Source of the DNA: Oscillospiraceae bacterium
GTDB taxonomy: Bacteria > Bacillota > Clostridia > Oscillospirales > Oscillospiraceae
Assembly: GCA_015068325.1 (NCBI GenBank)
Contig: SVKQ01000001.1
Coordinates: 1 to 64,000, forward strand
Direction: 5' to 3'
DNA length: 64,000 nucleotides
Below are positions 25,836 to 38,023 of this stretch, in pieces (position 1 is the stretch's first letter; each line of letters begins with the position of its first letter). Under the pieces are notes generated by a model. It ran no database searches, was not told the DNA's origin, and saw only the letters and a list, made by a program, of their open reading frames with translations. The translations under genes were made by a program, and so were the position numbers.

Positions 25836-27326
25836 CTATTCTTTCGCGTTTTTGTAAATTTCACAGGCGATGTTGTTCATCGCTTCGTCGGCTGCTTCCG
25901 TGACGTTGTTGTACATCACGGCAACGCAGATGTCTTTCTTGCGGGAAAAGACCCAGCTGGTCAGAAAACCCCAGTTCTCTCCGCCGTGGCCGGCCACGCT
26001 GTCTTTGCGGGCTTCCGATTCCCAAACGTCGAGGCAGAGCCCGTAGCCGTCCAGCACCGGCGTCATCATGCGCCGCGCGGTCTTCTTTTTGAGGAAGCCG
26101 CCCCGGCGGTAGCTCCTGGAGAGGGCAAGGCCGATCTTGACAAGCTCTGTGGGCGTCGTCCACAGACCGGCAGCGGCGTGCTCGGGATAGTAATGGTAAC
26201 CGTGGGCGGGATCCTCCTTCTGCGCCAGCCTGAAGCCGAACGCTGCGTTGGAAACCAGCTCTTCGTCCAGCGGCTGGAAAAAGCCGGTGCGCTGAAGGCC
26301 CAAAGGCTCGGCGACCTCCTTCTGGAAGGCCTCGCGGAGCGCGGTCCCCGTAATGCGTGTAAACGCAAGCTCGGCCAGGGTGATGCCGCCGCCGGAGTAC
26401 ATGTGCTGTTTGCCGTAAGGACGAATCCTTCTGAGCTTCGGCGTGACGCCCTTGCCGTTCAGCACGTCTTCGAGCGAGAGCGGCTCGTGATCCGCACGGT
26501 AGCCGGGGAAGCCGTGCAGGTTGTAGCCCGCCGTGTGGCTGAGCAGGGCGGCAAAGGTCACGGGGCCCTTCTTGACGAATTCCGGCACCACGCCCGAGAT
26601 ATCCGCGTCAAGGTCGATGAGCCCCTTGTCCACGTACCGCAGGAGGGTCAGCGCAAACATGGGTTTCGATACGGAACCCGCCTGGAACAGCATATCCGGG
26701 TTCACCGGGAAGTCCTCGCCATAGCGTCCGCTGCCGGCACAGTAGGTGAGGAAATCACCGTCTCCGGCCTGGACGGCAATGCTGACGCCGTAGCCCCTTT
26801 TGCCCTTGATGCGCATGGCCTTATCCACATCGACGCCATAGACATTCTTGATGATCCGGTTGGGGCCTTTGAGCATCCGCATCAGCACAGCCTCATCGCC
26901 ATCGATGATGCCGGTCTCCCGGAAGCCCGCTTTATGATAAACGTGCAGGCCCAGCTCGTTCTCCGGCTCGGTGGAGAGGAAAAGCCGGTCCGCGCCGTTT
27001 TCTTTGAAGTATTTGATGATCTCCTGCAGGGCGGCCTGGCCGTAACCCTTGCCCTGCTCGTTCTTGTCGACCATGAAGCGCCAGAGCCAGTAGCGGTCGT
27101 CCTCATCCTCTTCTTCCGGATTGAATGCGAACATGCAGAAGCCCACCAGCTTCTCATCTGCATAGATGGCAAAGGGCCGGGCCACGCCGGCCTGCTCCGC
27201 GTTCGCCTCGTCCGCCTGCCGCAGTGAGACGTCGTTCGGGGCGACGAAGGGCTGATCCTCCCGCACGGAAAGAGCCAGAACGGCTTCTCTGTTATTATCA
27301 TTGATCGGTTCCAGTTTAATTATCAT
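25836..27326 (-). CDS. GNAT-beta-lactamase-like serine hydrolase fusion
   Basis: A 496-aa two-domain protein. Residues 1-152 are a GNAT acetyltransferase (LWRFMVDKNEQGKGYGQAA). Residues about 160-496 are a class C beta-lactamase/esterase-like domain with the S-x-x-K motif SVSK (218-221), the YSGGG segment at the Tyr-motif position and HGGENWG at the third motif. No signal peptide, so it should act in the cytoplasm, unlike true beta-lactamases. Possible roles are modification or hydrolysis of amide/ester compounds. AAGGAGAAAA precedes the ATG. Confidence 0.88.
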   Translation of the reverse strand: MIIKLEPINDNNREAVLALSVREDQPFVAPNDVSLRQADEANAEQAGVARPFAIYADEKLVGFCMFAFNPEEEDEDDRYWLWRFMVDKNEQGKGYGQAALQEIIKYFKENGADRLFLSTEPENELGLHVYHKAGFRETGIIDGDEAVLMRMLKGPNRIIKNVYGVDVDKAMRIKGKRGYGVSIAVQAGDGDFLTYCAGSGRYGEDFPVNPDMLFQAGSVSKPMFALTLLRYVDKGLIDLDADISGVVPEFVKKGPVTFAALLSHTAGYNLHGFPGYRADHEPLSLEDVLNGKGVTPKLRRIRPYGKQHMYSGGGITLAELAFTRITGTALREAFQKEVAEPLGLQRTGFFQPLDEELVSNAAFGFRLAQKEDPAHGYHYYPEHAAAGLWTTPTELVKIGLALSRSYRRGGFLKKKTARRMMTPVLDGYGLCLDVWESEARKDSVAGHGGENWGFLTSWVFSRKKDICVAVMYNNVTEAADEAMNNIACEIYKNAKE

Positions 27327-28775: not shown

Positions 28776-29153
28776 TTATGCATAAATCAGATCGTTGTTC
28801 ACAACCTCCATAGCTCGATTCCGAATGTTGTTCATCCGCTGTAGCCACAGCATTTGATCCTGGACCTTAAGTTGTTCTGTGACGCCTTCACGGGCCGCCA
28901 TCTGCTTAACCAGCTCAAGAAACATTGTCTCGGCTTGCTCGTTCAGATCGGCAAGATAAGCGTTCAGCGTGCCGGAGGTCAGCAGCTCCGTGTACAGCGC
29001 CTTACGGTGCTGCCGGAGATACCGCAGATGCCGCTGACCCCAAGCGCCGATGGGCCTTTGTTCTTCAGCGGGCAGCTTCAAACATGGAACGAAATAATTG
29101 CCTTGCAGCTCATACCAAAGTCCGTTCTTTTCGTCGTAGATGTGTTTTTCCAT
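28776..29153 (-). CDS. TnpV-like transposon protein, copy 1
   Basis: A 125-aa protein of the TnpV type known from Tn4451-like Clostridia elements. Signature segments are NGLWYELQG, GAWGQRHLRYL and QMLWLQRMNNI. GGAGGATTACATC precedes the ATG at 29153. Function unknown. A second copy lies at 51663. It marks mobile DNA. A hairpin (GGGCGGT/ACCGCCC) follows the stop. Confidence 0.85.
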   Translation of the reverse strand: MEKHIYDEKNGLWYELQGNYFVPCLKLPAEEQRPIGAWGQRHLRYLRQHRKALYTELLTSGTLNAYLADLNEQAETMFLELVKQMAAREGVTEQLKVQDQMLWLQRMNNIRNRAMEVVNNDLIYA

Positions 29154-29214
29154 GATGTAATCCTCCAAATTTGATTGATTCCTGCAATTCAATCACTCTG
29201 GCTGATTACAAAAG

Positions 29215-29264
29215 CCCCAAGGGAGGCAACTTCCTTACGAAGTGCCTCCCTTGGGGGCCGTCTT
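29215..29264. terminator. Terminator hairpin with GTAAGGAAG loop, copy C
   Basis: CCCCAAGGGAGGCA pairs with TGCCTCCCTTGGGG; the loop on the minus strand reads CTTCGTAAGGAAG. The plus side ends in a T-run. It lies just 3' of the sirtuin gene. Confidence 0.7.
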
Positions 29265-29291: not shown

Positions 29292-30209
29292 TCACTGCAG
29301 GTCCCGGATGATTTGGCCGATGTCGCCATCAATGCAGATGGACCGGTCCGCGATGGCGGAGGGGCAGGCCGCGTCACCGTAGTTGAGGCAGGCGTAGGTA
29401 GCCTCTGGATTCCGGGCCGTCATCTGCCAAAAGGGGTACTTGATGATGCCGGGGGTGTTATAGCCCACGCCCAGTTCCAGATACAGCACCCGGCCGCCCC
29501 GGGTGCGCAGGAAGTCGGCATAGCGCTCCGCGGCGGCGTGCCAGCCCTCGTCCTCTGCAAAGGTGTCGTCGGAGCGCAGATTCATGCGCATGGGCTTGCT
29601 GCAGACGGGACATCGGGGGACCAACTCCGTGGGCACTGTCATCCGGAGCTGCGCACCCTCCGGGACCGTCAGTGCGCCGTTGTCTCCCACGGTGAAGCCC
29701 TGGGCCATGACCATCTGCCGGACGGCTGACTCGTTGTCGTAGGTCTTCCGGTGGCAGGGCTCGCTGCACTGCCACAGGCCGTAGTCGCCTTGAGTGTAGA
29801 AGAGGCGCTTCTTGTCGAAGCCGGCCTTCTGGAAGCAGTGGTCCACGTTGGTGGTGAGGACGAAATAATCCCTGTCCTGCACCAGCGCCAGCAGTTCCCG
29901 ATAGACGGGCCTGGGCGGGTCGGTGTAGCGGTTGATGAAGATATAGCGGCTCCAGTAGGCCCACAGCTCCTCCGGGGTGGAGAAGGGATAGAAGCCGCCG
30001 CTGTACATGTCCCGAAAGCTGTATTTGGCGGCAAAATCGGAAAAATACCGCTGGAACCGCTCTCCGCTGTACACATAGCCGGCGGAGGTGGAGAGCCCGG
30101 CACCGGCACCGATGACCATCGCGTCGGACGCTGCCAGTGCCTGACGCAGCTGATCGATCTTATCCGAGGATGGCCCGGTAGATCTGTTCATCGGTTTCGC
30201 TGAAAACAT
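29292..30209 (-). CDS. Class M (SirTM-like) sirtuin
   Basis: A 305-aa Sir2-fold protein of the macrodomain-linked class. GAGAGLSTSAG (NAD site, about 34-44), TTNVDH (about 118-123) and Cys pairs (CSEPC, CPVC) that would bind zinc are present. SirTM enzymes transfer ADP-ribose to a protein, in other bacteria a GcvH-like lipoyl carrier. No GcvH-L or lipoate ligase gene lies nearby. Here the gene overlaps the macrodomain gene by 50 bp and ends the peptide-maturase operon. A start at 30191 (MNRSTG) is also possible. The domain ends in IGQIIRDL near the stop, so no truncation. Confidence 0.87.
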   Translation of the reverse strand: MFSAKPMNRSTGPSSDKIDQLRQALAASDAMVIGAGAGLSTSAGYVYSGERFQRYFSDFAAKYSFRDMYSGGFYPFSTPEELWAYWSRYIFINRYTDPPRPVYRELLALVQDRDYFVLTTNVDHCFQKAGFDKKRLFYTQGDYGLWQCSEPCHRKTYDNESAVRQMVMAQGFTVGDNGALTVPEGAQLRMTVPTELVPRCPVCSKPMRMNLRSDDTFAEDEGWHAAAERYADFLRTRGGRVLYLELGVGYNTPGIIKYPFWQMTARNPEATYACLNYGDAACPSAIADRSICIDGDIGQIIRDLQ

Positions 30210-30936
30210 TGAAGATCACCTCGATCGAATGGTTGTGTTCTGCCCGGCAGGCCCGAACCGTCTCCACGGCGATTTCCGCCGCCCGCCGCCGGGGAAAGCC
30301 GAACACGCCGGTGGAGATACAGCAGAAGGCGACGCTTTTCACATTGTGCTCCGCCGCCAGCGCCAAACAGGCGCGGTAACAGGAGGCCAGCTGCGTCTCC
30401 TGCTCCGCCGTCGCCGTCCCGCCGCCGACGATGGGCCCCACGGTGTGGAGCACATACCGGCAGGGCAGGTTGTAGGCGGGCGTGATCTTGGCCTGGCCGG
30501 TGGGCTCCTCGTATCCCTGCGCCTCCATGAGCTCCGCGCAGGCGCTGCGCAGCTGGATCCCCGCGTAGGTGTGGATGCAGTTGTCGATGCAGTTGTGGCA
30601 AGGCTGGTAGCAGCCGGTCATGCCGCTGTTGGCAGCGTTGACGATGGCACCGCAGCGCAGCGTGGTGATGTCGCCGCGCCACAGGTAGAAGCCCGGCTCC
30701 ACAGGGGTCAGGTCCGACAGCTCTGTCACGCCCTTTTCGGCGATGGCCTCCTGCAGATATGCGTCCTGCACAGCGGCAAACTCGCTGCCGATGGGGCGGG
30801 GCGGGCGCACGTTCATCAGCGAGCGCAGCAGATCCTTCTGTCCCTGCCGGTCATCCGGCACGGCGATGCGGCCGAAGCGGGGCTCCTCCCGCAGGAGCTC
30901 CTGGATCAGGAAAATTCGTCTCTCAGCCTGGTTCAT
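30160..30936 (-). CDS. Zinc-type macrodomain ADP-ribosyl hydrolase
   Basis: A 258-aa protein with a helical N-terminal lead of about 85 residues and a macrodomain. The ADP-ribose site begins IVNAANSGMTG. The following CYQPCHNCIDNC cluster and later STGVFGFP match the Zn-macro group linked to SirTM sirtuins. Such proteins remove ADP-ribose from the sirtuin's target. The start overlaps the upstream reductase gene by 14 bp. Confidence 0.9.
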   Translation of the reverse strand: MNQAERRIFLIQELLREEPRFGRIAVPDDRQGQKDLLRSLMNVRPPRPIGSEFAAVQDAYLQEAIAEKGVTELSDLTPVEPGFYLWRGDITTLRCGAIVNAANSGMTGCYQPCHNCIDNCIHTYAGIQLRSACAELMEAQGYEEPTGQAKITPAYNLPCRYVLHTVGPIVGGGTATAEQETQLASCYRACLALAAEHNVKSVAFCCISTGVFGFPRRRAAEIAVETVRACRAEHNHSIEVIFNVFSETDEQIYRAILG

Positions 30937-31888
30937 GTCGATCCACCCTTATCACGATCTTGCCGTTGACACCGCCCGCGTCCTGGGCGGCTGCGGCACA
31001 CGGTATCTCCTCCAGATCATACACCCTGCCGACGGCGGGGACAAGCCTCTTTTCCCGCAGGAAGGCGAAGATCTCATCCATGATCGTCTGGGTGGGGTAG
31101 TTGGAGAAGAAGCCGGTAAGATAGACGCCGTTGGGGATGTCCTTGATGGGGTCAAACCCGTTCAGCGCATAAACGCCGCCCAGCAGACCCGTCTGGCAGA
31201 CGATACCGCCCTTTTCCACGGAGGTGAGCGTGTCCTTCAGATCGCGGGGACCGATCAAATCAAGGGCTTTTGTAATGCCATGTACTTTGCCGGTCAACTT
31301 GCCGTCGTCGAGCACGGCTTCATCCGCTTCCGCGATCAGCGCCAGCTTGCTCTCCCGATGTGTCGTGGCGATCACGCGGCTGCCAAGCGCTTTTGCGATC
31401 TGTATCGCGGCATAGCCCAGCGCACAGGTGGCGCCGCGGATCAACAGCGTATCGTCTGCGGTCAGGCGCAGGCACTCGAACAGCGAGCCCCACGCCGTGA
31501 ACCAGGTTTCCGGCACCGCGCCCAGCACCTCCCAGGGCAGGCCGCTCTCCACCGGGAACACGATCCGGCGGGGCAGCAGCGCATATTCGGCGTAGCTGCC
31601 GTGGAAGGAACGGCCCATGCCGCCCATCAGCGCGACAACTTTCTGCCCGGCGGCTAGGCCGCTGTCGGAGGGGTCGGCGATCTCGCCGACACATTCGATA
31701 CCGGGGATGATTGGCTTCCGGATGTAGTCGGCCCGGATCTCATGCAGCCGCAGCAGCTTTTCGGAATGGTTCAGCCCGAAGGCCTTGACCCGTACCAGTA
31801 CCCAGCCGGGACGGACTTCGGGGGTCGGAACTTCGGACAGAACGACGTCCTTACCTTCTGTAATCCTGTTAAGCAATACAGCCTTCAT
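30923..31888 (-). CDS. Zinc-binding-dehydrogenase-type quinone oxidoreductase
   Basis: A 321-aa medium-chain reductase: N-terminal GroES-like domain with FGLNHSEKLL and PGIECVG, then an NADP-binding Rossmann domain (LGYAAIQIAKALG at about 155). No catalytic zinc Cys is apparent, matching the NADPH:quinone reductase branch. It overlaps the upstream radical SAM gene by 20 bp and the downstream macrodomain gene by 14 bp, so it is embedded in the same operon. Start with GGAGGAAAT. Substrate unknown; it could act on the peptide product. Confidence 0.85.
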   Translation of the reverse strand: MKAVLLNRITEGKDVVLSEVPTPEVRPGWVLVRVKAFGLNHSEKLLRLHEIRADYIRKPIIPGIECVGEIADPSDSGLAAGQKVVALMGGMGRSFHGSYAEYALLPRRIVFPVESGLPWEVLGAVPETWFTAWGSLFECLRLTADDTLLIRGATCALGYAAIQIAKALGSRVIATTHRESKLALIAEADEAVLDDGKLTGKVHGITKALDLIGPRDLKDTLTSVEKGGIVCQTGLLGGVYALNGFDPIKDIPNGVYLTGFFSNYPTQTIMDEIFAFLREKRLVPAVGRVYDLEEIPCAAAAQDAGGVNGKIVIRVDRHEPG

Positions 31889-32957
31889 CTTTTATTTCCT
31901 CCGTTTTCGGCGTCAGCAGACCGGTTTCCTCGCTGGCCCAGCACTGCGGGTCATCGCCGTAAAAATCGCCGGTATAGCCTTTTGCCACGGCGGGACAGCC
32001 GCGGCAGAATTGTTTCAGTTTACAGCGGGAGCACTTGGAGAACGCATCATACTTGCGATAGGCTTCCATGCCGGTGATCCAAACATCCGCGAGGCGGTCC
32101 TCAAAGATGTTTCCGACCTTGCTCTCCGCTGCGCGGCGGCAGGCGTAGATATCGCCGGTGGGGAGGATCGTAATGTGGCAGTTGCCGCAGTTGCAGCCGC
32201 CGTAGATCATGCCGTCGCAGGTGTAGGCCGGGAGCTGGAATGCCCCGGTCTCATACTCGTACAGCGTCCAGAGATGGTCTTTTTTGCTGAAATAGGTGCC
32301 GCAGCCCTCTGCCTCGTACTCCCGGAATTTCTGATCGCAAATGGCCAGCAGGTTCCGGTACTCCTGCGGCGTCATGGAAGTGTCCAACTCGCCGCCGGAG
32401 GGAACGTACCGGGAGAAGGCGAAGATGTTGGCGCCGGCCTCTGCCACGGCGTCGATGATGCCGGGCACTTCCATATAGTTCTGCTTGGATACCGTGGTCA
32501 TGATGACGCTGCGGATGCCGGCCCGGTTGATGCAGCCGATCTTCTCCAGCGTGCAGTCAAAGCTGCCGGGCTTGCGGAACCAGTCGTGGGTCTCCCGCAG
32601 GCCGTCCAGCGAGAGCTGATATTTCTGACAACCGAAAAACTTCAGCTCACGGCAGACCTGGTCGTTCAAATGAAAGGGGTTGCCCATGATCGTGAAGGGG
32701 ATCTCATGCGCATGAAACAGTTCCAGCAGCCGCCAGAAATCCGTGTGCAGGATCGGGTCGCCGCCGGTGAGATAGAAATAGGGCAGACGGTCGTAGACCG
32801 CGCAGAAGTCCAAACAGTTGTAGAAAGTGTCCTCCATCTGCTGCCAGGTCATGCTGTCCAGCTTCCGGCAGGGATCCCCGGAGAAGATATAGCAGTGCCT
32901 GCACCGCTGGTCACATTCATCTGTGATATGCCATTGAAAAGAGAAATACGGTTTCAT
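31869..32957 (-). CDS. Radical SAM/SPASM peptide maturase, ACGX system
   Basis: A 362-aa enzyme. The CxxxCxxC [4Fe-4S] motif is CDQRCRHC (Cys 15, 19, 22). GGDP (SAM binding) follows. C-terminal SPASM cysteines occur in CGNC, CSRCKLKQFCRGC and after. Such enzymes modify ribosomally made peptides. The 50-aa ACGX-repeat gene 80 bp upstream is the expected substrate. The ATG at 32957 has AAGGACG; an in-frame Met at 32978 lacks a site. A strong hairpin lies between peptide and enzyme genes. Confidence 0.9.
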   Translation of the reverse strand: MKPYFSFQWHITDECDQRCRHCYIFSGDPCRKLDSMTWQQMEDTFYNCLDFCAVYDRLPYFYLTGGDPILHTDFWRLLELFHAHEIPFTIMGNPFHLNDQVCRELKFFGCQKYQLSLDGLRETHDWFRKPGSFDCTLEKIGCINRAGIRSVIMTTVSKQNYMEVPGIIDAVAEAGANIFAFSRYVPSGGELDTSMTPQEYRNLLAICDQKFREYEAEGCGTYFSKKDHLWTLYEYETGAFQLPAYTCDGMIYGGCNCGNCHITILPTGDIYACRRAAESKVGNIFEDRLADVWITGMEAYRKYDAFSKCSRCKLKQFCRGCPAVAKGYTGDFYGDDPQCWASEETGLLTPKTEEIKDEGCIA

Positions 32958-33005
32958 TGCCTTCGTCCTTTTATCCATAACCGGCCAGGCCGGATCATTT
33001 TGTTG

Positions 33006-33030
33006 TCCCGGCGGAGAGCCTCCGCCGGGA
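33006..33030 (-). terminator. Attenuator hairpin between peptide and maturase genes
   Basis: TCCCGGCGGAG pairs perfectly with CTCCGCCGGGA around AGC. There is no long T-run, so read-through is likely. This would give more peptide than enzyme transcript. Confidence 0.7.
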
Positions 33031-33037
33031 GAAGGGC

Positions 33038-33190
33038 TTACTTGTCGGCCGCGCCGCAGGCAGCGGGAGCCTCGGCAGCACCGCAGGCAGCGGGGGCCTC
33101 GGCGGGCTTGTCGGCAGCACCGCAGGCAGTGGCGGGAGCGGTCTCCTCATCCTTCTTCTTGCCCCATCCGAACAGATCAGAAAGTGCCAT
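33038..33190 (-). CDS. ACGX-repeat ribosomally synthesised peptide precursor
   Basis: A 50-aa peptide: leader MALSDLFGWGKKKDEE, then Ala-rich sequence with three ACGA units (Cys 23, 36, 45) separated by Asp/Glu/Lys/Pro. This is the ACGX-repeat family, modified by the adjacent radical SAM enzyme. AGGAGG stands 8 bp ahead of the ATG at 33190. The three Cys are the probable modification sites. The mature structure and activity are not known. Confidence 0.9.
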   Translation of the reverse strand: MALSDLFGWGKKKDEETAPATACGAADKPAEAPAACGAAEAPAACGAADK

Positions 33191-33241
33191 GGTCATATCC
33201 TCCTTTACGGTTGTCAAAGAGATGTCCTCTCTGCATATTTC

Positions 33242-33269
33242 ATTATACGGGCGTCCGGCGGGCGCACAA
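33242..33269 (-). promoter_or_regulatory. Promoter of the ACGX operon
   Basis: On the minus strand TTGTGC, 16-bp spacer, TATAAT, 50 bp before the peptide start. Confidence 0.7.
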
Positions 33270-33275
33270 GTACGC

Positions 33276-33304
33276 ACTTTTTTATGCGTGGGTTATAAAA
33301 AAGT
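33276..33304. promoter_or_regulatory. Operator-like inverted repeat between hxlR and the peptide operon
   Basis: ACTTTTTTAT and ATAAAAAAGT, perfect 10-bp arms 9 bp apart, just upstream of both divergent promoters. A likely binding site for the adjacent HxlR protein. Confidence 0.55.
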
Positions 33305-33311
33305 AACTGTC

Positions 33312-33340
33312 TTGCCAGACGGCCGCATGTGCGGTATACT
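33312..33340 (+). promoter_or_regulatory. Promoter of the HxlR gene
   Basis: TTGCCA and TATACT with a 17-bp spacer, 43 bp before the ATG. Confidence 0.65.
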
Positions 33341-33383
33341 GACGAATGTAACATTCTTTTGGAAAGTAACGGAGGGTACAGGC

Positions 33384-33719
33384 ATGTTGACGAGGGAAGA
33401 ATTGCCGGATTGCCCGGTGGCCACCACCGTGCAGCTGATCGGGAACAAGTGGAAGCTGCTCATCATCCGCAATCTGCTGGGCCGTCCGTGGCGGTTCAAC
33501 GAACTGCACAAGAGCCTGGAGGGCATCAGCCAGAAGGTGCTGACCGACAGCCTGCGCCAGATGGAGGCGGACGGGATCATCACCCGCACCGTCTACCCGG
33601 AGGTCCCGCCCCGGGTGGAGTACGCCCTGTCGGAGCTGGGCGAGAGCATGCGTCCGATCCTGGACGCCATGCAGACCTGGGGAAACGGCTACAAGGCGCA
33701 GCGGGAGCAGGACGACTGA
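33384..33719 (+). CDS. HxlR family transcriptional regulator
   Basis: A 111-aa winged-helix protein. The CPVATTVQLIGNKWKLLIIR N-terminus, with the Cys near residue 9, is the family hallmark; the Cys can be redox-sensing as in YodB/QorR. It is divergent from the ACGX operon, which includes a quinone-oxidoreductase-like gene. Control of that operon is likely. The ATG at 33384 has GGAGGG. A strong terminator follows. Confidence 0.92.
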   Translation: MLTREELPDCPVATTVQLIGNKWKLLIIRNLLGRPWRFNELHKSLEGISQKVLTDSLRQMEADGIITRTVYPEVPPRVEYALSELGESMRPILDAMQTWGNGYKAQREQDD

Positions 33720-33833: not shown

Positions 33834-35981
33834 TCAGGGAAGCTCCCATTCGCTGCCGGTCAGCGCGGAGCGGGCGTCCTGCTCCGTGAGGGAGGAGATG
33901 GAGTTCAGCTCCTCGCCGTCTTCGCTGAGGACCAGCTGTCCGTTCCGAACGGCGATGTCGAAAAAGTGCTCCGCGCCGGTCTGGGTCACGCCCAGCACCT
34001 GGGGATGGCCGTGCTGCTCCGTGAAGCGCAGGTCGTACCAGTCGCTGTGGAAGATGCCGACGTACTTTATCTGGCCGTCCACCCGGGCGGCCATGGTAAA
34101 GGTGAACAGACCGGAGGTGGGACCGAAGCCCAGAGAGCAGGTCTCCGTGACGCCGTCGCCGTCCACGTCGAAGCGCAGGACATCATACCCGTCCTCGTAA
34201 TAGTGACCCTCATGGCGCATGTTCTCCGGGTACTCGCCGCCGGCATAGGTCTCGTCCCGCAGGAGCAGGGTGTTGCCATCCAGCGCGGCCGTCAGGGGGA
34301 AGGAGTTGTGCAGCACCACGATGTGGTAATCCATGCCGTTTTGCGTCTCGCCCCAGTAGGTGGGAGTGCCCTGCACATCGATTTCCAGCGACTGGCCGTC
34401 CCGTTCGCCGCCCTGCAGATACAGGGTGAAGGTGACGGCACTGCGGCGCGGTGTCGCGCTGTCCCAGGCGGGCGGCGTCCAGATGATCCGGGAGCCGGAG
34501 AGGACGGCGGCGCGGCCCGCGACGGTGGACCCGCTGCCGTTGGTGGTGTCCATCTGCGTGAGGGGCGGTGTGCCCCGGTTCAGGGTGCCGCTGAAGTAGC
34601 TGATGTCCACGGCGTCGCAGCCCAGCTCCGGTGCCAGCATCAGGAAAGGGGGCATTTTGTCGTTCCCGTAGCGGGGCTGGTGCCAGGTCAGCGCTTCGGC
34701 GGGCAGGACGGCGCGGAGACAGTCGGCCAGCTCCCGACTGCGGATCAGCGTCAGCTGCCCCTCATACGACAGCTCCACCTGATCCTCGCTACCCTCCGGC
34801 AGAGAGAGATAGATCCCCTCGGGGAAGTAGAGACTGCAGCCCTCCGGTGCCTCGATCCGGAAGCCGCCTTCGGTCAGCTGATCGGTATCCAGCTGCCGCA
34901 GCAGGGCACTCAGCGTCCGCTGCTGCTGCTGATCCAGCGCGCGGGCATAGTAGGCAGCGCCGCCGGAGCCGCTGTAGTAGACCAACAGCTCCGCGTCGCT
35001 CAGCCGCCAGGAAGTGCGGGTGCGCAGCCAGTGGGGACCGTCCTTCACCGGCGGATCGGTCAGGAAGCAGACAGCCGTCACCACCAACGCCAGCACCGCC
35101 AGCAGCACCAGCCAGAAGGCGGGCTTTTTGTAGTGGAGGGCGCCCTTGATCCGCTGGCCCACCCGCAGCTCGCCGAAGGCCACGGGGCACACGGCGGCGG
35201 TGCGGCGGGGCGCGGCGCAGTGCAGCAGCGCCGCGGAGTAGCGTCGGCGGCCCTCGTCATCCAGCGCGCGGAGCACCCGCTGGTCGCAGGCGTACTCCAT
35301 ATCGCGGCAGAAGAGGATATAGGCGGCCCACAGCAGCGGCTGGAACCAGTGGAGGGCCAGCAGCACGAAGGCCAGCACCTTCCACACGTGGTCGCCCCGG
35401 GCGATGTGGGCGCGCTCGTGGGCCGCCACCTGGGCCAGCGTGTCGCCGTCCATGCGGAAGGGCACGTAGATGCGGGGACGCAGCAGTCCCAGCACGAAGG
35501 GGGAGTCCACCCACTCGCTCTGCCACAGACCGTCCGGCGAGCGGACGGCGGTGCGCAGACGGAAGCGCAGGTGCAGGTACGTGCCCAGGCAGTAGAGCCC
35601 CAGCAGGGCGGCACCGGTGATCCAGATGACCGCCAGCAGATCCGCCGTGTGGGCCGCCGTGCCCGCCGGCACGGTGACGCCCTCGTAATAGACGCTCTGG
35701 AGATACTGCTCCACCTGCGTGTTCACCGCCGGGATGCCGGTCTCGATGACCGGACGGGCGGCGTGGAGGGAGCCGGGCACGATGGTCTGGGCGCTGGGCA
35801 CCAGACTGAAGCTGCTGGGAATGGAGAAGGGCAGCGCCAGCCGCGCGGCCACCACGCCCCACAGGGTGCAGTGGATCCACCGGGGCGCCCTGCGCAGCAG
35901 CAGCCGCAGGACGACCACCGCCAGCACCAGCCAGCCGGCGGTCACGGCCCGGTTCACAAAGCCCAGAAATACGGTGTTCAT
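33834..35981 (-). CDS. BlaR1/MecR1-like M56 membrane metalloprotease
   Basis: A 715-aa integral membrane protein. Residues 1-310 hold membrane helices and the zinc protease motif HERAH (HExxH, near residue 195). The C-terminal 390 residues are an external sensor region without clear beta-lactamase motifs. BlaR1 proteases cleave the BlaI repressor on sensing a signal. The ATG overlaps the blaI stop (ATGA). With no penicillin-binding motif, the sensed signal is probably not a beta-lactam, but this is inferred. Confidence 0.88.
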   Translation of the reverse strand: MNTVFLGFVNRAVTAGWLVLAVVVLRLLLRRAPRWIHCTLWGVVAARLALPFSIPSSFSLVPSAQTIVPGSLHAARPVIETGIPAVNTQVEQYLQSVYYEGVTVPAGTAAHTADLLAVIWITGAALLGLYCLGTYLHLRFRLRTAVRSPDGLWQSEWVDSPFVLGLLRPRIYVPFRMDGDTLAQVAAHERAHIARGDHVWKVLAFVLLALHWFQPLLWAAYILFCRDMEYACDQRVLRALDDEGRRRYSAALLHCAAPRRTAAVCPVAFGELRVGQRIKGALHYKKPAFWLVLLAVLALVVTAVCFLTDPPVKDGPHWLRTRTSWRLSDAELLVYYSGSGGAAYYARALDQQQQRTLSALLRQLDTDQLTEGGFRIEAPEGCSLYFPEGIYLSLPEGSEDQVELSYEGQLTLIRSRELADCLRAVLPAEALTWHQPRYGNDKMPPFLMLAPELGCDAVDISYFSGTLNRGTPPLTQMDTTNGSGSTVAGRAAVLSGSRIIWTPPAWDSATPRRSAVTFTLYLQGGERDGQSLEIDVQGTPTYWGETQNGMDYHIVVLHNSFPLTAALDGNTLLLRDETYAGGEYPENMRHEGHYYEDGYDVLRFDVDGDGVTETCSLGFGPTSGLFTFTMAARVDGQIKYVGIFHSDWYDLRFTEQHGHPQVLGVTQTGAEHFFDIAVRNGQLVLSEDGEELNSISSLTEQDARSALTGSEWELP

Positions 35982-36349
35982 TCGGATGCACCTCCCTCAT
36001 GGCTGTCGATCAGACGGCGCAGCGCCTCCACCTCCGCCTCGGTGAGCTTTTCCCGGCGGGCAAAGGCCGCCACGAAGGCCGGCAGCGACCCCTCGAAGGT
36101 GCGCTCCACCAGCCCGTCCAGCTCGGCGGCCTGGGCCTCCTCCTTGCTGACCAGGGCGGTGACGGTGGCGCACTCGTTCTTCACCACGCCCCGCTCCGCC
36201 AGGCGGCGGATCACCGTGTAGGTGGTGGCCTTGGACCAGCCCAGCCTTTCCCGGCACAGCCGCACCAGCTCGGTGCTGTTCACCGGCTCGTGCTCCCACA
36301 GGATCAGGCAGAAGCGGTACTCGCTCTCAAAGATTTTCGGTGTCGGCAT
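35978..36349 (-). CDS. BlaI/MecI family repressor
   Basis: A 123-aa winged-helix repressor (ESEYRFCLILWEHEPVNSTELV, GWSKATTYTVIRRL). It pairs with the BlaR1-like protease. GGAGGGG precedes the ATG at 36349. Its dyad operator overlaps the -10 (36407-36423), so autoregulation is expected. Confidence 0.92.
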   Translation of the reverse strand: MPTPKIFESEYRFCLILWEHEPVNSTELVRLCRERLGWSKATTYTVIRRLAERGVVKNECATVTALVSKEEAQAAELDGLVERTFEGSLPAFVAAFARREKLTEAEVEALRRLIDSHEGGASE

Positions 36350-36406
36350 GGGACACCCCTCCTTATACCCAAAAGGTCGAATCAATTAAACCCATCTGTC
36401 GGGACA

Positions 36407-36935: not shown

Positions 36936-37145
36936 ATGAGCAAACGATGGTGGAGAGCGGCGGCCGTACGGGCCGTGCGCACCGTGGCCCAGGCGGCGGC
37001 CTCGCTGATCGGTGTGGGCGCCGTGATGAGCGACGTGCACTGGCCGACGGTGGCCAGCGCCTCGCTGCTGGCGGGGATCCTGTCCCTGCTGACCAGCGTG
37101 GCGGGCCTGCCGGAGGTGGACGGGACGGAGGAGCGCGGCGCATGA
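36936..37145 (+). CDS. Phage holin (r1t-like)
   Basis: A 69-aa protein with basic N-terminus and two hydrophobic segments (residues about 12-32 and 40-57). The AQAAASLIGVGAVMSDVHW segment is typical of r1t-type holins. It forms membrane holes that release an endolysin. The stop overlaps the lysozyme start (ATGA). Confidence 0.82.
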   Translation: MSKRWWRAAAVRAVRTVAQAAASLIGVGAVMSDVHWPTVASASLLAGILSLLTSVAGLPEVDGTEERGA

Positions 37146-38023
37146 GGAAATTCGGCATCGACGTGTCTACCTGGCAGGGGGATTTCAACTTTGAAAAAGC
37201 CGTGGCCGAGGGGGTGCAGTTTGCCGTCCTCAAGGGCGGCGGCGGGGACGACGGGCTCTATGTGGACCGGCGCTTCGCCGACAACTACCGCAAGGCCGCG
37301 GCGCTGGACCTGCCGGTGGGCTGCTACTGGTTCAGCCGGGCGCTGACGGCAGAGGAGGCCCGGCGGGAGGCGGACTACTTCTACGACCGCTGTCTGCAGG
37401 GCCGGCAGTTCGCCCTGCCGGTCTATATGGACGTGGAGCACAAGGCCATGCTGGCCCTGGGCAAACGGAAGCTGACGGACGTCGTAAAGGCCTGGTGCGC
37501 CGCGCTGGAGGAGAAGGACATGCTGCCCGGTATCTACAGCTCCAAGTACTATTTCGACGCATATCTCTACGACGGTGAGTTGATGCAATACCCCCACTGG
37601 GTGGCCTCCTGGTCCAAAAGCTGCCGCTTCACACCGGAGAGCTGCTTCGGGATGTGGCAGTTCGGCGGGGAGACGAACCTGCTGCGCAGCAACAAGGTGG
37701 CGGGCGTGGTGTGCGACCAGGACTATCTGCTGATCGACTACCCGGCCCGGATCCGGCGGGAGGGGAAAAACGGCTTCGCGACGGAGAGCGCCGCGCAGAA
37801 GGAGGTGTGTACGGTGACGCTGCCTGTTCTGCGCAAGGGGATGCAGTCCGGCTATGTGAAGACGGCCCAGATCCTGCTGAACGCTTATTTCAACGCCGGT
37901 CTGGCGGTGGATGGCGGCTTCGGCAGCAAGACCTATGCCGCCGTGGTGGCCTATCAGAAAAACCGCGGGCTGACCGTGGACGGCGTGGTGGGCACCCAGA
38001 CCTGGGGCCAGCTGCTGAAGTAA
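37142..38023 (+). CDS. GH25 lysozyme with C-terminal peptidoglycan-binding domain
   Basis: A 293-aa endolysin. Residues 1-190 are a GH25 muramidase (FGIDVSTWQG; YMDVEH at about 98, acidic pair). Residues about 225-293 are a PG_binding_1 domain (VDGGFGSKTYAAVVAYQ and TVDGVVGTQTWGQLL). No signal peptide, so export depends on the upstream holin. No other phage genes lie nearby, so the cassette is isolated and perhaps domesticated. Confidence 0.92.
   Translation: MRKFGIDVSTWQGDFNFEKAVAEGVQFAVLKGGGGDDGLYVDRRFADNYRKAAALDLPVGCYWFSRALTAEEARREADYFYDRCLQGRQFALPVYMDVEHKAMLALGKRKLTDVVKAWCAALEEKDMLPGIYSSKYYFDAYLYDGELMQYPHWVASWSKSCRFTPESCFGMWQFGGETNLLRSNKVAGVVCDQDYLLIDYPARIRREGKNGFATESAAQKEVCTVTLPVLRKGMQSGYVKTAQILLNAYFNAGLAVDGGFGSKTYAAVVAYQKNRGLTVDGVVGTQTWGQLLK

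What the first reader, a model, noticed from the sequence alone, without database searches (positions are those of the whole stretch)
29292..33719. ACGX peptide-maturase operon fused to a sirtuin-macrodomain ADP-ribosylation pair
A three-unit ACGX peptide, its radical SAM/SPASM enzyme, a quinone-oxidoreductase-like gene, a Zn-macrodomain and a SirTM-like sirtuin run in one direction. The last four genes overlap (20, 14 and 50 bp). SirTM-macro pairs are known mainly with lipoyl carrier genes, which are absent here. Overlap suggests ADP-ribosylation may control, protect or modify the peptide pathway. I do not recall this combination being described.
Basis: partly seen in the sequence, partly recalled or inferred. 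Interest (0 to 1): 0.9.

Follow-up and report, generated by a model that had tools for sequence, protein, structure and literature searches.

The report
Peptide maturase operon with ADP-ribosylation switch
In this gut-type bacterium, genes for a small cysteine-repeat peptide and its modifying enzyme share one operon with a pair of enzymes that add and remove ADP-ribose, and because the same partnership recurs in many related bacteria, the peptide is a testable candidate for what that enzyme pair acts on.

Summary
Divergent HxlR regulator, operator, ACGX peptide, ACGX radical SAM/SPASM maturase, quinone-oxidoreductase-like gene, Zn-macrodomain and class-M sirtuin (SirTM) form one operon; overlaps of 20, 14 and 50 bp are exact. 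The link is not chance: in a 391-genome class sample 16 of 16 genomes with the maturase carry a SirTM (66 of 391 overall), 13 in cis; in one family 11 of 11 against 4 of the other 27. The link was made or broken repeatedly. It runs one way: 50 of the 66 SirTM genomes lack the maturase. New findings: a conserved operator, one hit in this genome; an invariant HxlR cysteine; peptide cysteines mostly in CX3D/E or CX3C, the former as in PapB substrates; no GcvH, the known SirTM substrate type, in 24 of 27 maturase genomes. Best reading: a thiol- or electrophile-stress cassette whose matured peptide is reversibly ADP-ribosylated, taking the place of lipoyl-GcvH-L. Functional coupling is well supported; the peptide as substrate is inferred (about 0.4). 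Decayed loci that keep macrodomain and sirtuin argue against strict dependence. I found no description of the combination in the open-access library searched.

The parts
33384..33719 (+). HxlR/MarR-type regulator, divergent, with a single N-terminal cysteine (Cys10)
   Evidence: Pfam HxlR E 4.8e-32; RrpB-like 121 bits, below that model's cut-off of 175; Cys10 conserved in 95 of 95 aligned HxlR sequences of ACGX loci and 36 of 37 of SirTM loci without the maturase
33264..33285 (-). Putative HxlR operator ATAAAAAAGTGCGTACTTGTGC (AAGT-N4-ACTT inverted repeat), between regulator and peptide gene
   Evidence: Conserved in 81 of 90 distinct ACGX loci with an HxlR gene; its 13-base core gives one hit at 1 mismatch or fewer in the 1.96-Mb own genome, an exact one (the reversed-letter control also gave one hit)
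33312..33340 (+). sigma-70-like promoter of the HxlR gene (consensus match only)
   Evidence: 10 of 12 matches
33038..33190 (-). ACGX-repeat precursor peptide, 50 aa; all three Cys stand in CX3D/E
   Evidence: TIGR04341 44.1 bits, cut-off 28; sequence
31869..32978 (-). ACGX radical SAM/SPASM peptide maturase (likely start 32957); CX3CX2C cluster motif
   Evidence: TIGR04340 566.6 bits, cut-off 400; Radical_SAM and SPASM Pfam hits; alignment A1
30923..31888 (-). ADH-superfamily, PIG3-like quinone oxidoreductase; many other loci carry nitroreductase and/or a PNPOx-ferredoxin protein here
   Evidence: Pfam ADH_N/ADH_zinc_N; best NCBIfam TIGR02824 135 bits, below its cut-off of 297
30160..30936 (-). 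Zn-macrodomain ADP-ribosyl hydrolase (eraser): Cx4HxC, NAAN, Dx3H
   Evidence: NF003163 350.7 bits; 8rsi/5kiv relatives; motifs read in the sequence
29292..30209 (-). SirTM class-M sirtuin (writer): Asn121, Gln140 (QG for HG), Arg212, GVGYNTP
   Evidence: 5a3a alignment, E 1.3e-68; residue roles
29214..29227 (-). terminator-like stem downstream of the sirtuin gene, probable end of operon
   Evidence: consensus match only

Best explanation
A dedicated, cysteine-bearing HxlR repressor senses thiol-reactive (quinone, disulfide or electrophile) stress and releases one operator. The operon makes (1) an ACGX peptide, which the SPASM rSAM enzyme converts, probably to Cys-Asp/Glu thioether links within its CX3D/E repeats; (2) an NAD(P)H or flavin oxidoreductase that supplies or takes electrons or detoxifies the trigger; (3) a SirTM that puts ADP-ribose on the matured peptide (on a repeat carboxylate or an unlinked thiol) and a Zn-macrodomain that takes it off, giving an NAD-dependent on/off switch. 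The peptide would stay in the cell and play the part that lipoyl-GcvH-L plays in the staphylococcal and streptococcal SirTM operon. Shown: operon anatomy, recurrence, co-occurrence, conserved operator-like site, CX3D/E spacing, absence of GcvH. Inferred: the inducer, repression by HxlR, thioether chemistry, ADP-ribosylation of the peptide, intracellular role.
For: Maturase genomes carry SirTM in 16 of 16 (class; 66 of 391 overall), 9 of 10 (order; 47 of 245) and 11 of 11 (one family; 4 of the other 27); Fisher p 8e-14, 1.5e-6 and 1.1e-6, not corrected for phylogeny. In cis: 13 of 16 (class), 11 of 11 (family), 5 of 10 (order), and 34 of 52 loci with at least 5 kb downstream, window included. 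ACGX-linked SirTMs are scattered: 27 label changes on the SirTM tree, at least 8 forced by well-supported branches; sirtuin-first gene order in L045, L080, L082 and L232. A redox gene lies within 2.5 kb after the maturase in 81 of 81 loci. HxlR Cys10 in 95 of 95; operator in 81 of 90 distinct loci. D/E at +4 of 352 of 564 cysteines, against 0, 0, 3 and 10 at +1, +2, +3 and +5; PapB links Cys to Asp/Glu in CX3D/E. GcvH absent from 24 of 27 maturase genomes; where present, not near the cassette. Precedent: SirTM modifies the operon's own enzyme-modified small protein.
Against: Most SirTM genomes lack the maturase: 50 of 66 (class), 38 of 47 (order). SirTM and macrodomain persist after loss of the peptide system (L131: peptide gene with a stop, maturase gone; L193: maturase gone), and sit straight behind the HxlR gene in L136 and L148. 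Three loci with room (L060, L061, L067) have the peptide system but no SirTM match in the genome; L008 has only a fragment; G151 has none (MAG gaps possible). Of 20 further SirTM regions fetched, mostly SirTMs away from the maturase, 3 hold the operator core. The maturase scores far below the PapB cut-off (59.5 of 340 bits). The +4 spacing is not the only peak: D/E stand at +8 of 383 of 481 cysteines, and the L232 peptide has no CX3D/E at all. No biochemistry.
Confidence: 0.42

Rival explanations
1. Shared regulon, separate targets. SirTM and macrodomain serve a general thiol- or electrophile-stress response in these bacteria; the ACGX peptide is another effector of that response. They sit together because they must be expressed together, and the ADP-ribosylated protein is the oxidoreductase, the maturase or something outside the operon.
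For: An HxlR gene lies in the fetched stretch in 41 of 93 sirtuin rows without a maturase upstream (rows, cut-short loci included); the same or a similar operator stands before HxlR in 14 of 38 loci that have HxlR but no maturase; PNPOx-type genes are frequent there; macrodomain and sirtuin outlive the peptide system.
Against: Does not by itself explain why the maturase is rarely found without a SirTM while the reverse is common, nor why the pair is kept when it lies elsewhere in the genome, mostly without the operator core nearby.
Confidence: 0.43
2. The peptide is a secreted or killing product and ADP-ribosylation is self-protection or immunity.
For: Operon with a modified peptide resembles RiPP clusters; reversible capping could keep it inactive.
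Against: The recurring genes within the cassette are redox, macrodomain, sirtuin and regulator genes. ABC- and MATE-transporter-like clusters (my reading of the sequences) turn up in the flanks of 9 and 8 of 81 loci but never between maturase and sirtuin. No search by transporter or peptidase profile was run.
Confidence: 0.08
3. Anti-phage defence island using NAD-linked enzymes.
For: Other sirtuins act in defence (recalled); weak viperin-like rSAM match.
Against: PADLOC gives no hit for sirtuin, macrodomain or oxidoreductase, and the viperin match (44 bits) reflects, I infer, only the rSAM core beside 567 bits for TIGR04340.
Confidence: 0.04
4. Chance neighbours.
For: SirTM pairs are common in the class (66 of 391).
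Against: All co-occurrence and cis counts and repeated linkage on the tree.
Confidence: 0.03

Closest known systems
SirTM extended operon (GcvH-L, LplA2, Zn-macrodomain, SirTM, OYE, LLM) of Staphylococcaceae and Lactobacillales
   Same: Same writer/eraser pair by sequence and catalytic motifs; operon-encoded small protein modified by an operon-encoded enzyme; redox oxidoreductases; stress logic
   Different: No GcvH in the operon; instead an ACGX peptide and rSAM maturase, a divergent HxlR regulator, and QOR or nitroreductase plus PNPOx-ferredoxin
Lone SirTM/Zn-macrodomain pairs
   Same: Pair without GcvH-L; substrate unknown; common in the same order and class
   Different: Here the pair is tied to a peptide maturation system, which offers a candidate substrate
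ACGX system (NCBIfam TIGR04340 and TIGR04341)
   Same: Both models matched above their cut-offs
   Different: In the literature library searched I found no described chemistry or function, and no ADP-ribosylation or HxlR link
PapA/PapB ranthipeptide (freyrasin) system
   Same: Repeated CX3D/E motifs in the peptide; radical SAM/SPASM enzyme
   Different: Maturase scores 59.5 against a cut-off of 340 bits; about a third of the cysteines (192 of 568) stand in CX3C instead; no structural proof of thioether links

Membership tests
Class M sirtuin (SirTM) | QG in place of catalytic HG | tested here: met
   Gln140-Gly141 aligned with SpySirTM Gln137 (rule)
Class M sirtuin (SirTM) | Conserved Asn118, Arg192 and GVGx[NT]TP of SpySirTM | tested here: met
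   Asn121, Arg212, GVGYNTP in the alignment; chain numbers shifted by 10 to match the paper's Gln137
Class M sirtuin (SirTM) | Genetic linkage to a Zn-macrodomain | tested here: met
   50-bp overlap in the window; of 130 adjacent pairs counted over all loci, 100 overlap by 20 bp or more with the macrodomain first
Class M sirtuin (SirTM) | Protein ADP-ribosylation without deacylation | not testable with these tools
   needs enzyme assay
Zn-macrodomain | Cx4HxC zinc loop, NAAN, Dx3H dyad, N-terminal extension | tested here: met
   Read in the translation; motifs from PMC11490716 section 4; full-length alignment to 8rsi
SirTM extended operon | GcvH-L gene in the operon | tested here: not met
   The own genome's one GcvH match lies on another contig, C19; none near the cassette in 27 maturase genomes; positive control G613 has GcvH about 1.1 kb from its SirTM
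SirTM extended operon | LplA2 gene in the operon | tested here: not met
   None of the window operon's genes is a lipoate ligase; not searched by profile in other genomes
SirTM extended operon | OYE and LLM oxidoreductases | tested here: not met
   Only an ADH/PIG3-type oxidoreductase in the window operon
ACGX system | TIGR04340 maturase and TIGR04341 peptide above cut-off | tested here: met
PapB ranthipeptide maturase | NF047865 above cut-off | tested here: not met
   59.5 of 340 bits
PapB ranthipeptide maturase | Substrate with CX3D/E motifs | tested here: met
   352 of 568 cysteines in 92 distinct peptides; window 3 of 3; one of the 92 peptides has none
PapB ranthipeptide maturase | Cys-to-Asp/Glu thioether product | not testable with these tools
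   needs mass spectrometry
HxlR redox sensor | HxlR domain with conserved N-terminal cysteine | tested here: met
   that this cysteine senses thiol stress is recalled from HxlR relatives

The most novel reading that the evidence does not exclude
The ACGX peptide is a new kind of ADP-ribosylation substrate: a radical-SAM-modified, intracellular CX3D/E peptide whose activity is switched by SirTM and reversed by the Zn-macrodomain, replacing lipoyl-GcvH-L. As far as I recall it would be the first RiPP-type product under reversible ADP-ribosyl control, and it would give a substrate to part of the orphan lone SirTM pairs.
Probability: 0.35. Interest if true: 0.92.

Novelty: new variant of a known kind. 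Interest (0 to 1): 0.74.

Why it matters
Substrates of SirTM/Zn-macrodomain pairs outside the GcvH-L operon are open. Ariza 2024 (sections 7 and 11 read) reports that the Zn-macrodomains tested from a lone pair and from fusion proteins do not act on GcvH-L, and asks for the substrates of the fused forms. The ACGX family has a name but, in the literature searched, no described chemistry or role. This linkage, found in many anaerobic gut-type bacteria, turns two open questions into one experiment: co-express peptide and maturase, add sirtuin and NAD, and look for a mass gain that the macrodomain removes.

Tried and rejected
Chance adjacency: rejected by counts and tree. Lipoyl-carrier reading: rejected for 24 of 27 maturase genomes. 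Defence island: PADLOC empty apart from the generic rSAM core. A specificity control with the PapB family over the same 391 genomes failed: 321 genomes match at E 1e-60, presumably through a widespread related SPASM maturase (my inference), and only 2 (G439, G359) pass the cut-off, neither in the SirTM list; too few to use. So the co-occurrence has no independent accessory-gene control, only the within-family count. First architecture script stopped on an error and was redone. The HxlR model was contaminated by antisense ORFs of the peptide region; it was rebuilt, and HxlR counts use the rebuilt model. Co-regulation of SirTM in trans by the same operator was looked for and mostly not found. 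No structure prediction was run.

Limits: the 80 loci are the best 80 of 569 confirmed hits of a capped scan, so biased to close relatives of the window; many contigs are short MAG pieces. Fisher tests ignore phylogeny. The SirTM cut-off (E 1e-30) lets in some other sirtuins, which raises the background rate. The operator profile was built from 67 exact sites in the same loci, and its control was a single-base shuffle of 40 loci. The tree is a quick one with many weak branches; on it the ACGX label is also more clustered than chance (0 of 500 shuffles as low), and changes may be losses as well as gains. Five of 106 maturase loci are duplicates; removes them, searches do not (one search counts distinct peptides).
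Full report
OBSERVATION. On the minus strand from 33190 to 29292 lie an ACGX peptide, a radical SAM/SPASM maturase, a quinone-oxidoreductase-like protein, a macrodomain and a sirtuin; a divergent HxlR gene (33384-33719) closes the block. The peptide and maturase pass the NCBIfam cut-offs for the ACGX system and the macrodomain passes that for protein-ADP-ribose hydrolase. The sirtuin has no Pfam hit but aligns over residues 17-301 with SpySirTM 5a3a at E 1.3e-68. It keeps the class-M features described in PMC4518038 (outline, Results part 1 of 3, the structure section and the Discussion read): Gln for the catalytic His, Asn118, Arg192 and GVGx[NT]TP. The macrodomain has the Cx4HxC zinc loop, NAAN and Dx3H of Zn-macrodomains (PMC11490716, outline and sections 4, 7 and 11 read). 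Overlaps of 20, 14 and 50 bp are as stated. Homologues suggest the maturase starts at 32957.

RECURRENCE. A scan of named species genomes gave 80 loci, the best of 569. With the window, 81 of 81 have a redox gene (QOR, nitroreductase or PNPOx-ferredoxin) within 2.5 kb after the maturase; of 52 with at least 5 kb downstream, 34 have a SirTM in cis, 31 of these with the macrodomain. Of the 18 without, 14 have a full SirTM elsewhere in the genome (for L050 it is on the same contig, about 10 kb upstream; the genome of L013 has a second maturase locus with SirTM in cis, L239), L008 has a fragment, and L060, L061 and L067 have none. Over all 79 genomes behind these loci, 66 have a SirTM match; of the other 13 loci, 10 have less than 2.5 kb of contig after the maturase.

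UNBIASED SAMPLES. Order: maturase in 10 of 245 genomes, SirTM in 47 of 245, both in 9 of 10; 5 of the 10 in cis, 3 elsewhere in the genome (G036, G076, G098), G094 unresolved at a contig end, and G151 without SirTM. Class: maturase 16 of 391, SirTM 66 of 391, both 16 of 16; 13 in cis, G036 and G529 not, G563 unresolved at a contig end. The two samples share some genomes; together 22 distinct maturase genomes, 21 with SirTM. Family of G294: maturase 11 of 38, all 11 with SirTM in cis; SirTM in 4 of the other 27. Fisher p values are 1.5e-6, 8e-14 and 1.1e-6, without phylogenetic correction. The association is one-sided: the peptide system nearly implies SirTM, but SirTM does not imply the peptide system.

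REPEATED LINKING. On a tree of 143 different SirTM sequences the label 'next to an ACGX maturase' needs 27 changes, at least 8 forced by well-supported branches; shuffled labels need about 44 and none of 500 shuffles is as low as 27, so the label is partly inherited and partly shifting. Gene order also varies: macrodomain then sirtuin with an overlap in 100 of 130 adjacent pairs counted, sirtuin first in L045, L080, L082 and L232. One operon inherited once would not look like this; gains and losses cannot be told apart.

REGULATION. A 22-bp site, ATAAAAAAGTGCGTACTTGTGC in the window (33264-33285), lies between HxlR and the peptide gene. A profile of it scores 14 or more in 81 of 90 distinct ACGX loci with an HxlR gene, against none in 467 kb of shuffled sequence; 67 sites in these loci built the profile. 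Fourteen of 38 loci with HxlR but no maturase also reach that score. In the own genome the 13-base core occurs once, exactly, with no one-mismatch copy; the reversed-letter control also gave one hit. The regulator thus looks dedicated to this operon. HxlR Cys10 is present in 95 of 95 and 36 of 37 aligned sequences. That such cysteines sense quinones, disulfides or electrophiles is recalled from YodB/HypR-type relatives, not shown here.

PEPTIDE. A peptide was found in 99 of 106 maturase loci, 92 distinct. Of 568 cysteines, 352 have Asp or Glu at +4 and 192 have Cys there; of the 192, 185 have their partner Cys in CX3D/E. Asp/Glu is almost absent at +1, +2, +3, +5 and +6 (0, 0, 3, 10 of 564 to 568 and 15 of 498), but peaks again at +8 (383 of 481), partly from CX3CX3D/E and partly from a second acidic stretch in the repeat; one peptide (L232) has no CX3D/E. 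The window peptide has three cysteines, all CX3D/E. PapB links Cys to Asp or Glu in this spacing (PMC9413430, outline, abstract and passages seen). The maturase is not a PapB family member by score, so this is a likeness of substrate, not of descent. In PapB products the link is to the carbon beside the carboxylate, so, I infer, an acceptor of the kind modified in GcvH-L (an Asp) would remain; the CX3C cysteines could stay free. Zn-macrodomains are said to be the only known hydrolases for ADP-ribosyl-cysteine.

SUBSTRATE QUESTION. GcvH (PF01597) is found in 5 of 65 genomes given to the search: 3 of 27 with the maturase (G000, G098, G529; on other contigs than the maturase, and in G529 about 50 kb from the SirTM) and 2 of 38 with SirTM only (38 chosen from the SirTM-only genomes, not all of them). 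In G613 GcvH lies about 1.1 kb from the SirTM, which serves as a positive control. So in 24 of 27 maturase genomes the known substrate type was not found.

EVIDENCE AGAINST THE PEPTIDE AS SUBSTRATE. Of 66 SirTM genomes in the class sample 50 lack the maturase. L131 carries a peptide gene interrupted by a stop, a remnant of the oxidoreductase and no maturase, yet DUF1848, macrodomain and sirtuin genes follow behind the operator; L193 lacks the maturase; L136 and L148 have macrodomain and sirtuin straight behind the HxlR gene. Of 20 more SirTM regions fetched, 3 hold the operator core; one of the 20 (L239) is an in-cis locus cut before the operator. These facts fit a general stress role of the pair with the peptide as one client or neighbour; hence near-equal weights for the two leading explanations.

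LITERATURE. In 5.39 million open-access papers: 'ACGX' with 'radical SAM' 0, 'TIGR04340' 0, 'ACGX' alone 14, none on the peptide judging by title and abstract start; three of macrodomain, radical SAM, RiPP, sirtuin, HxlR: 12, none relevant judging by title and abstract start; 'protein-ADP-ribose hydrolase' with 'SPASM domain' 0. The five-term SirTM, GcvH, Clostridia, peptide, operon search returned only Rack 2015. Subscription journals and preprints were not searched.

VERDICT. The linkage is real, very probably selected and, as far as searched, undescribed. It is a new variant of the SirTM operon kind, with a rSAM-peptide module in place of the lipoyl module. The mechanism needs a short biochemical test.

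Noticed in passing
28776-29192 (-): TnpV, a transposon-encoded protein (Pfam TnpV E 9.9e-47), lies directly downstream of the sirtuin gene.
   Followed up: no
33834-36385 (-): BlaR1/M56 peptidase-like gene and a BlaI-type repressor gene side by side, next to the HxlR gene.
   Followed up: no
25836-27326 (-): A single ORF joins a GNAT acetyltransferase domain to a beta-lactamase-family domain.
   Followed up: no
36947-38023 (+): GH25 lysozyme domain with a peptidoglycan-binding domain.
   Followed up: no
L012:10038-10985 and L131:2842-3762: A DUF1848 protein (PF08902 in L012; its L131 relative by likeness of sequence) stands between the oxidoreductase or its remnant and the macrodomain, overlapping the macrodomain gene; an occasional accessory of the cassette.
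   Followed up: partly
L029, L026, L036 and others, between maturase and macrodomain: PNPOx-like flavin protein with two 4Fe-4S ferredoxin motifs, often beside a nitroreductase, in place of or after the QOR; a possible electron donor.
   Followed up: partly
L161 (G139) and L170 (G159): Tandem runs of three and two diverged sirtuin-like genes (32-42% to the window sirtuin) with no macrodomain match in the fetched stretch.
   Followed up: no
L147, L150, L160: A diverged maturase group (52-55% identity) whose peptides start MLxxVA and carry ACGAADP-type repeats, in cis with SirTM in L147 and L150 (L160 ends at a contig edge).
   Followed up: partly
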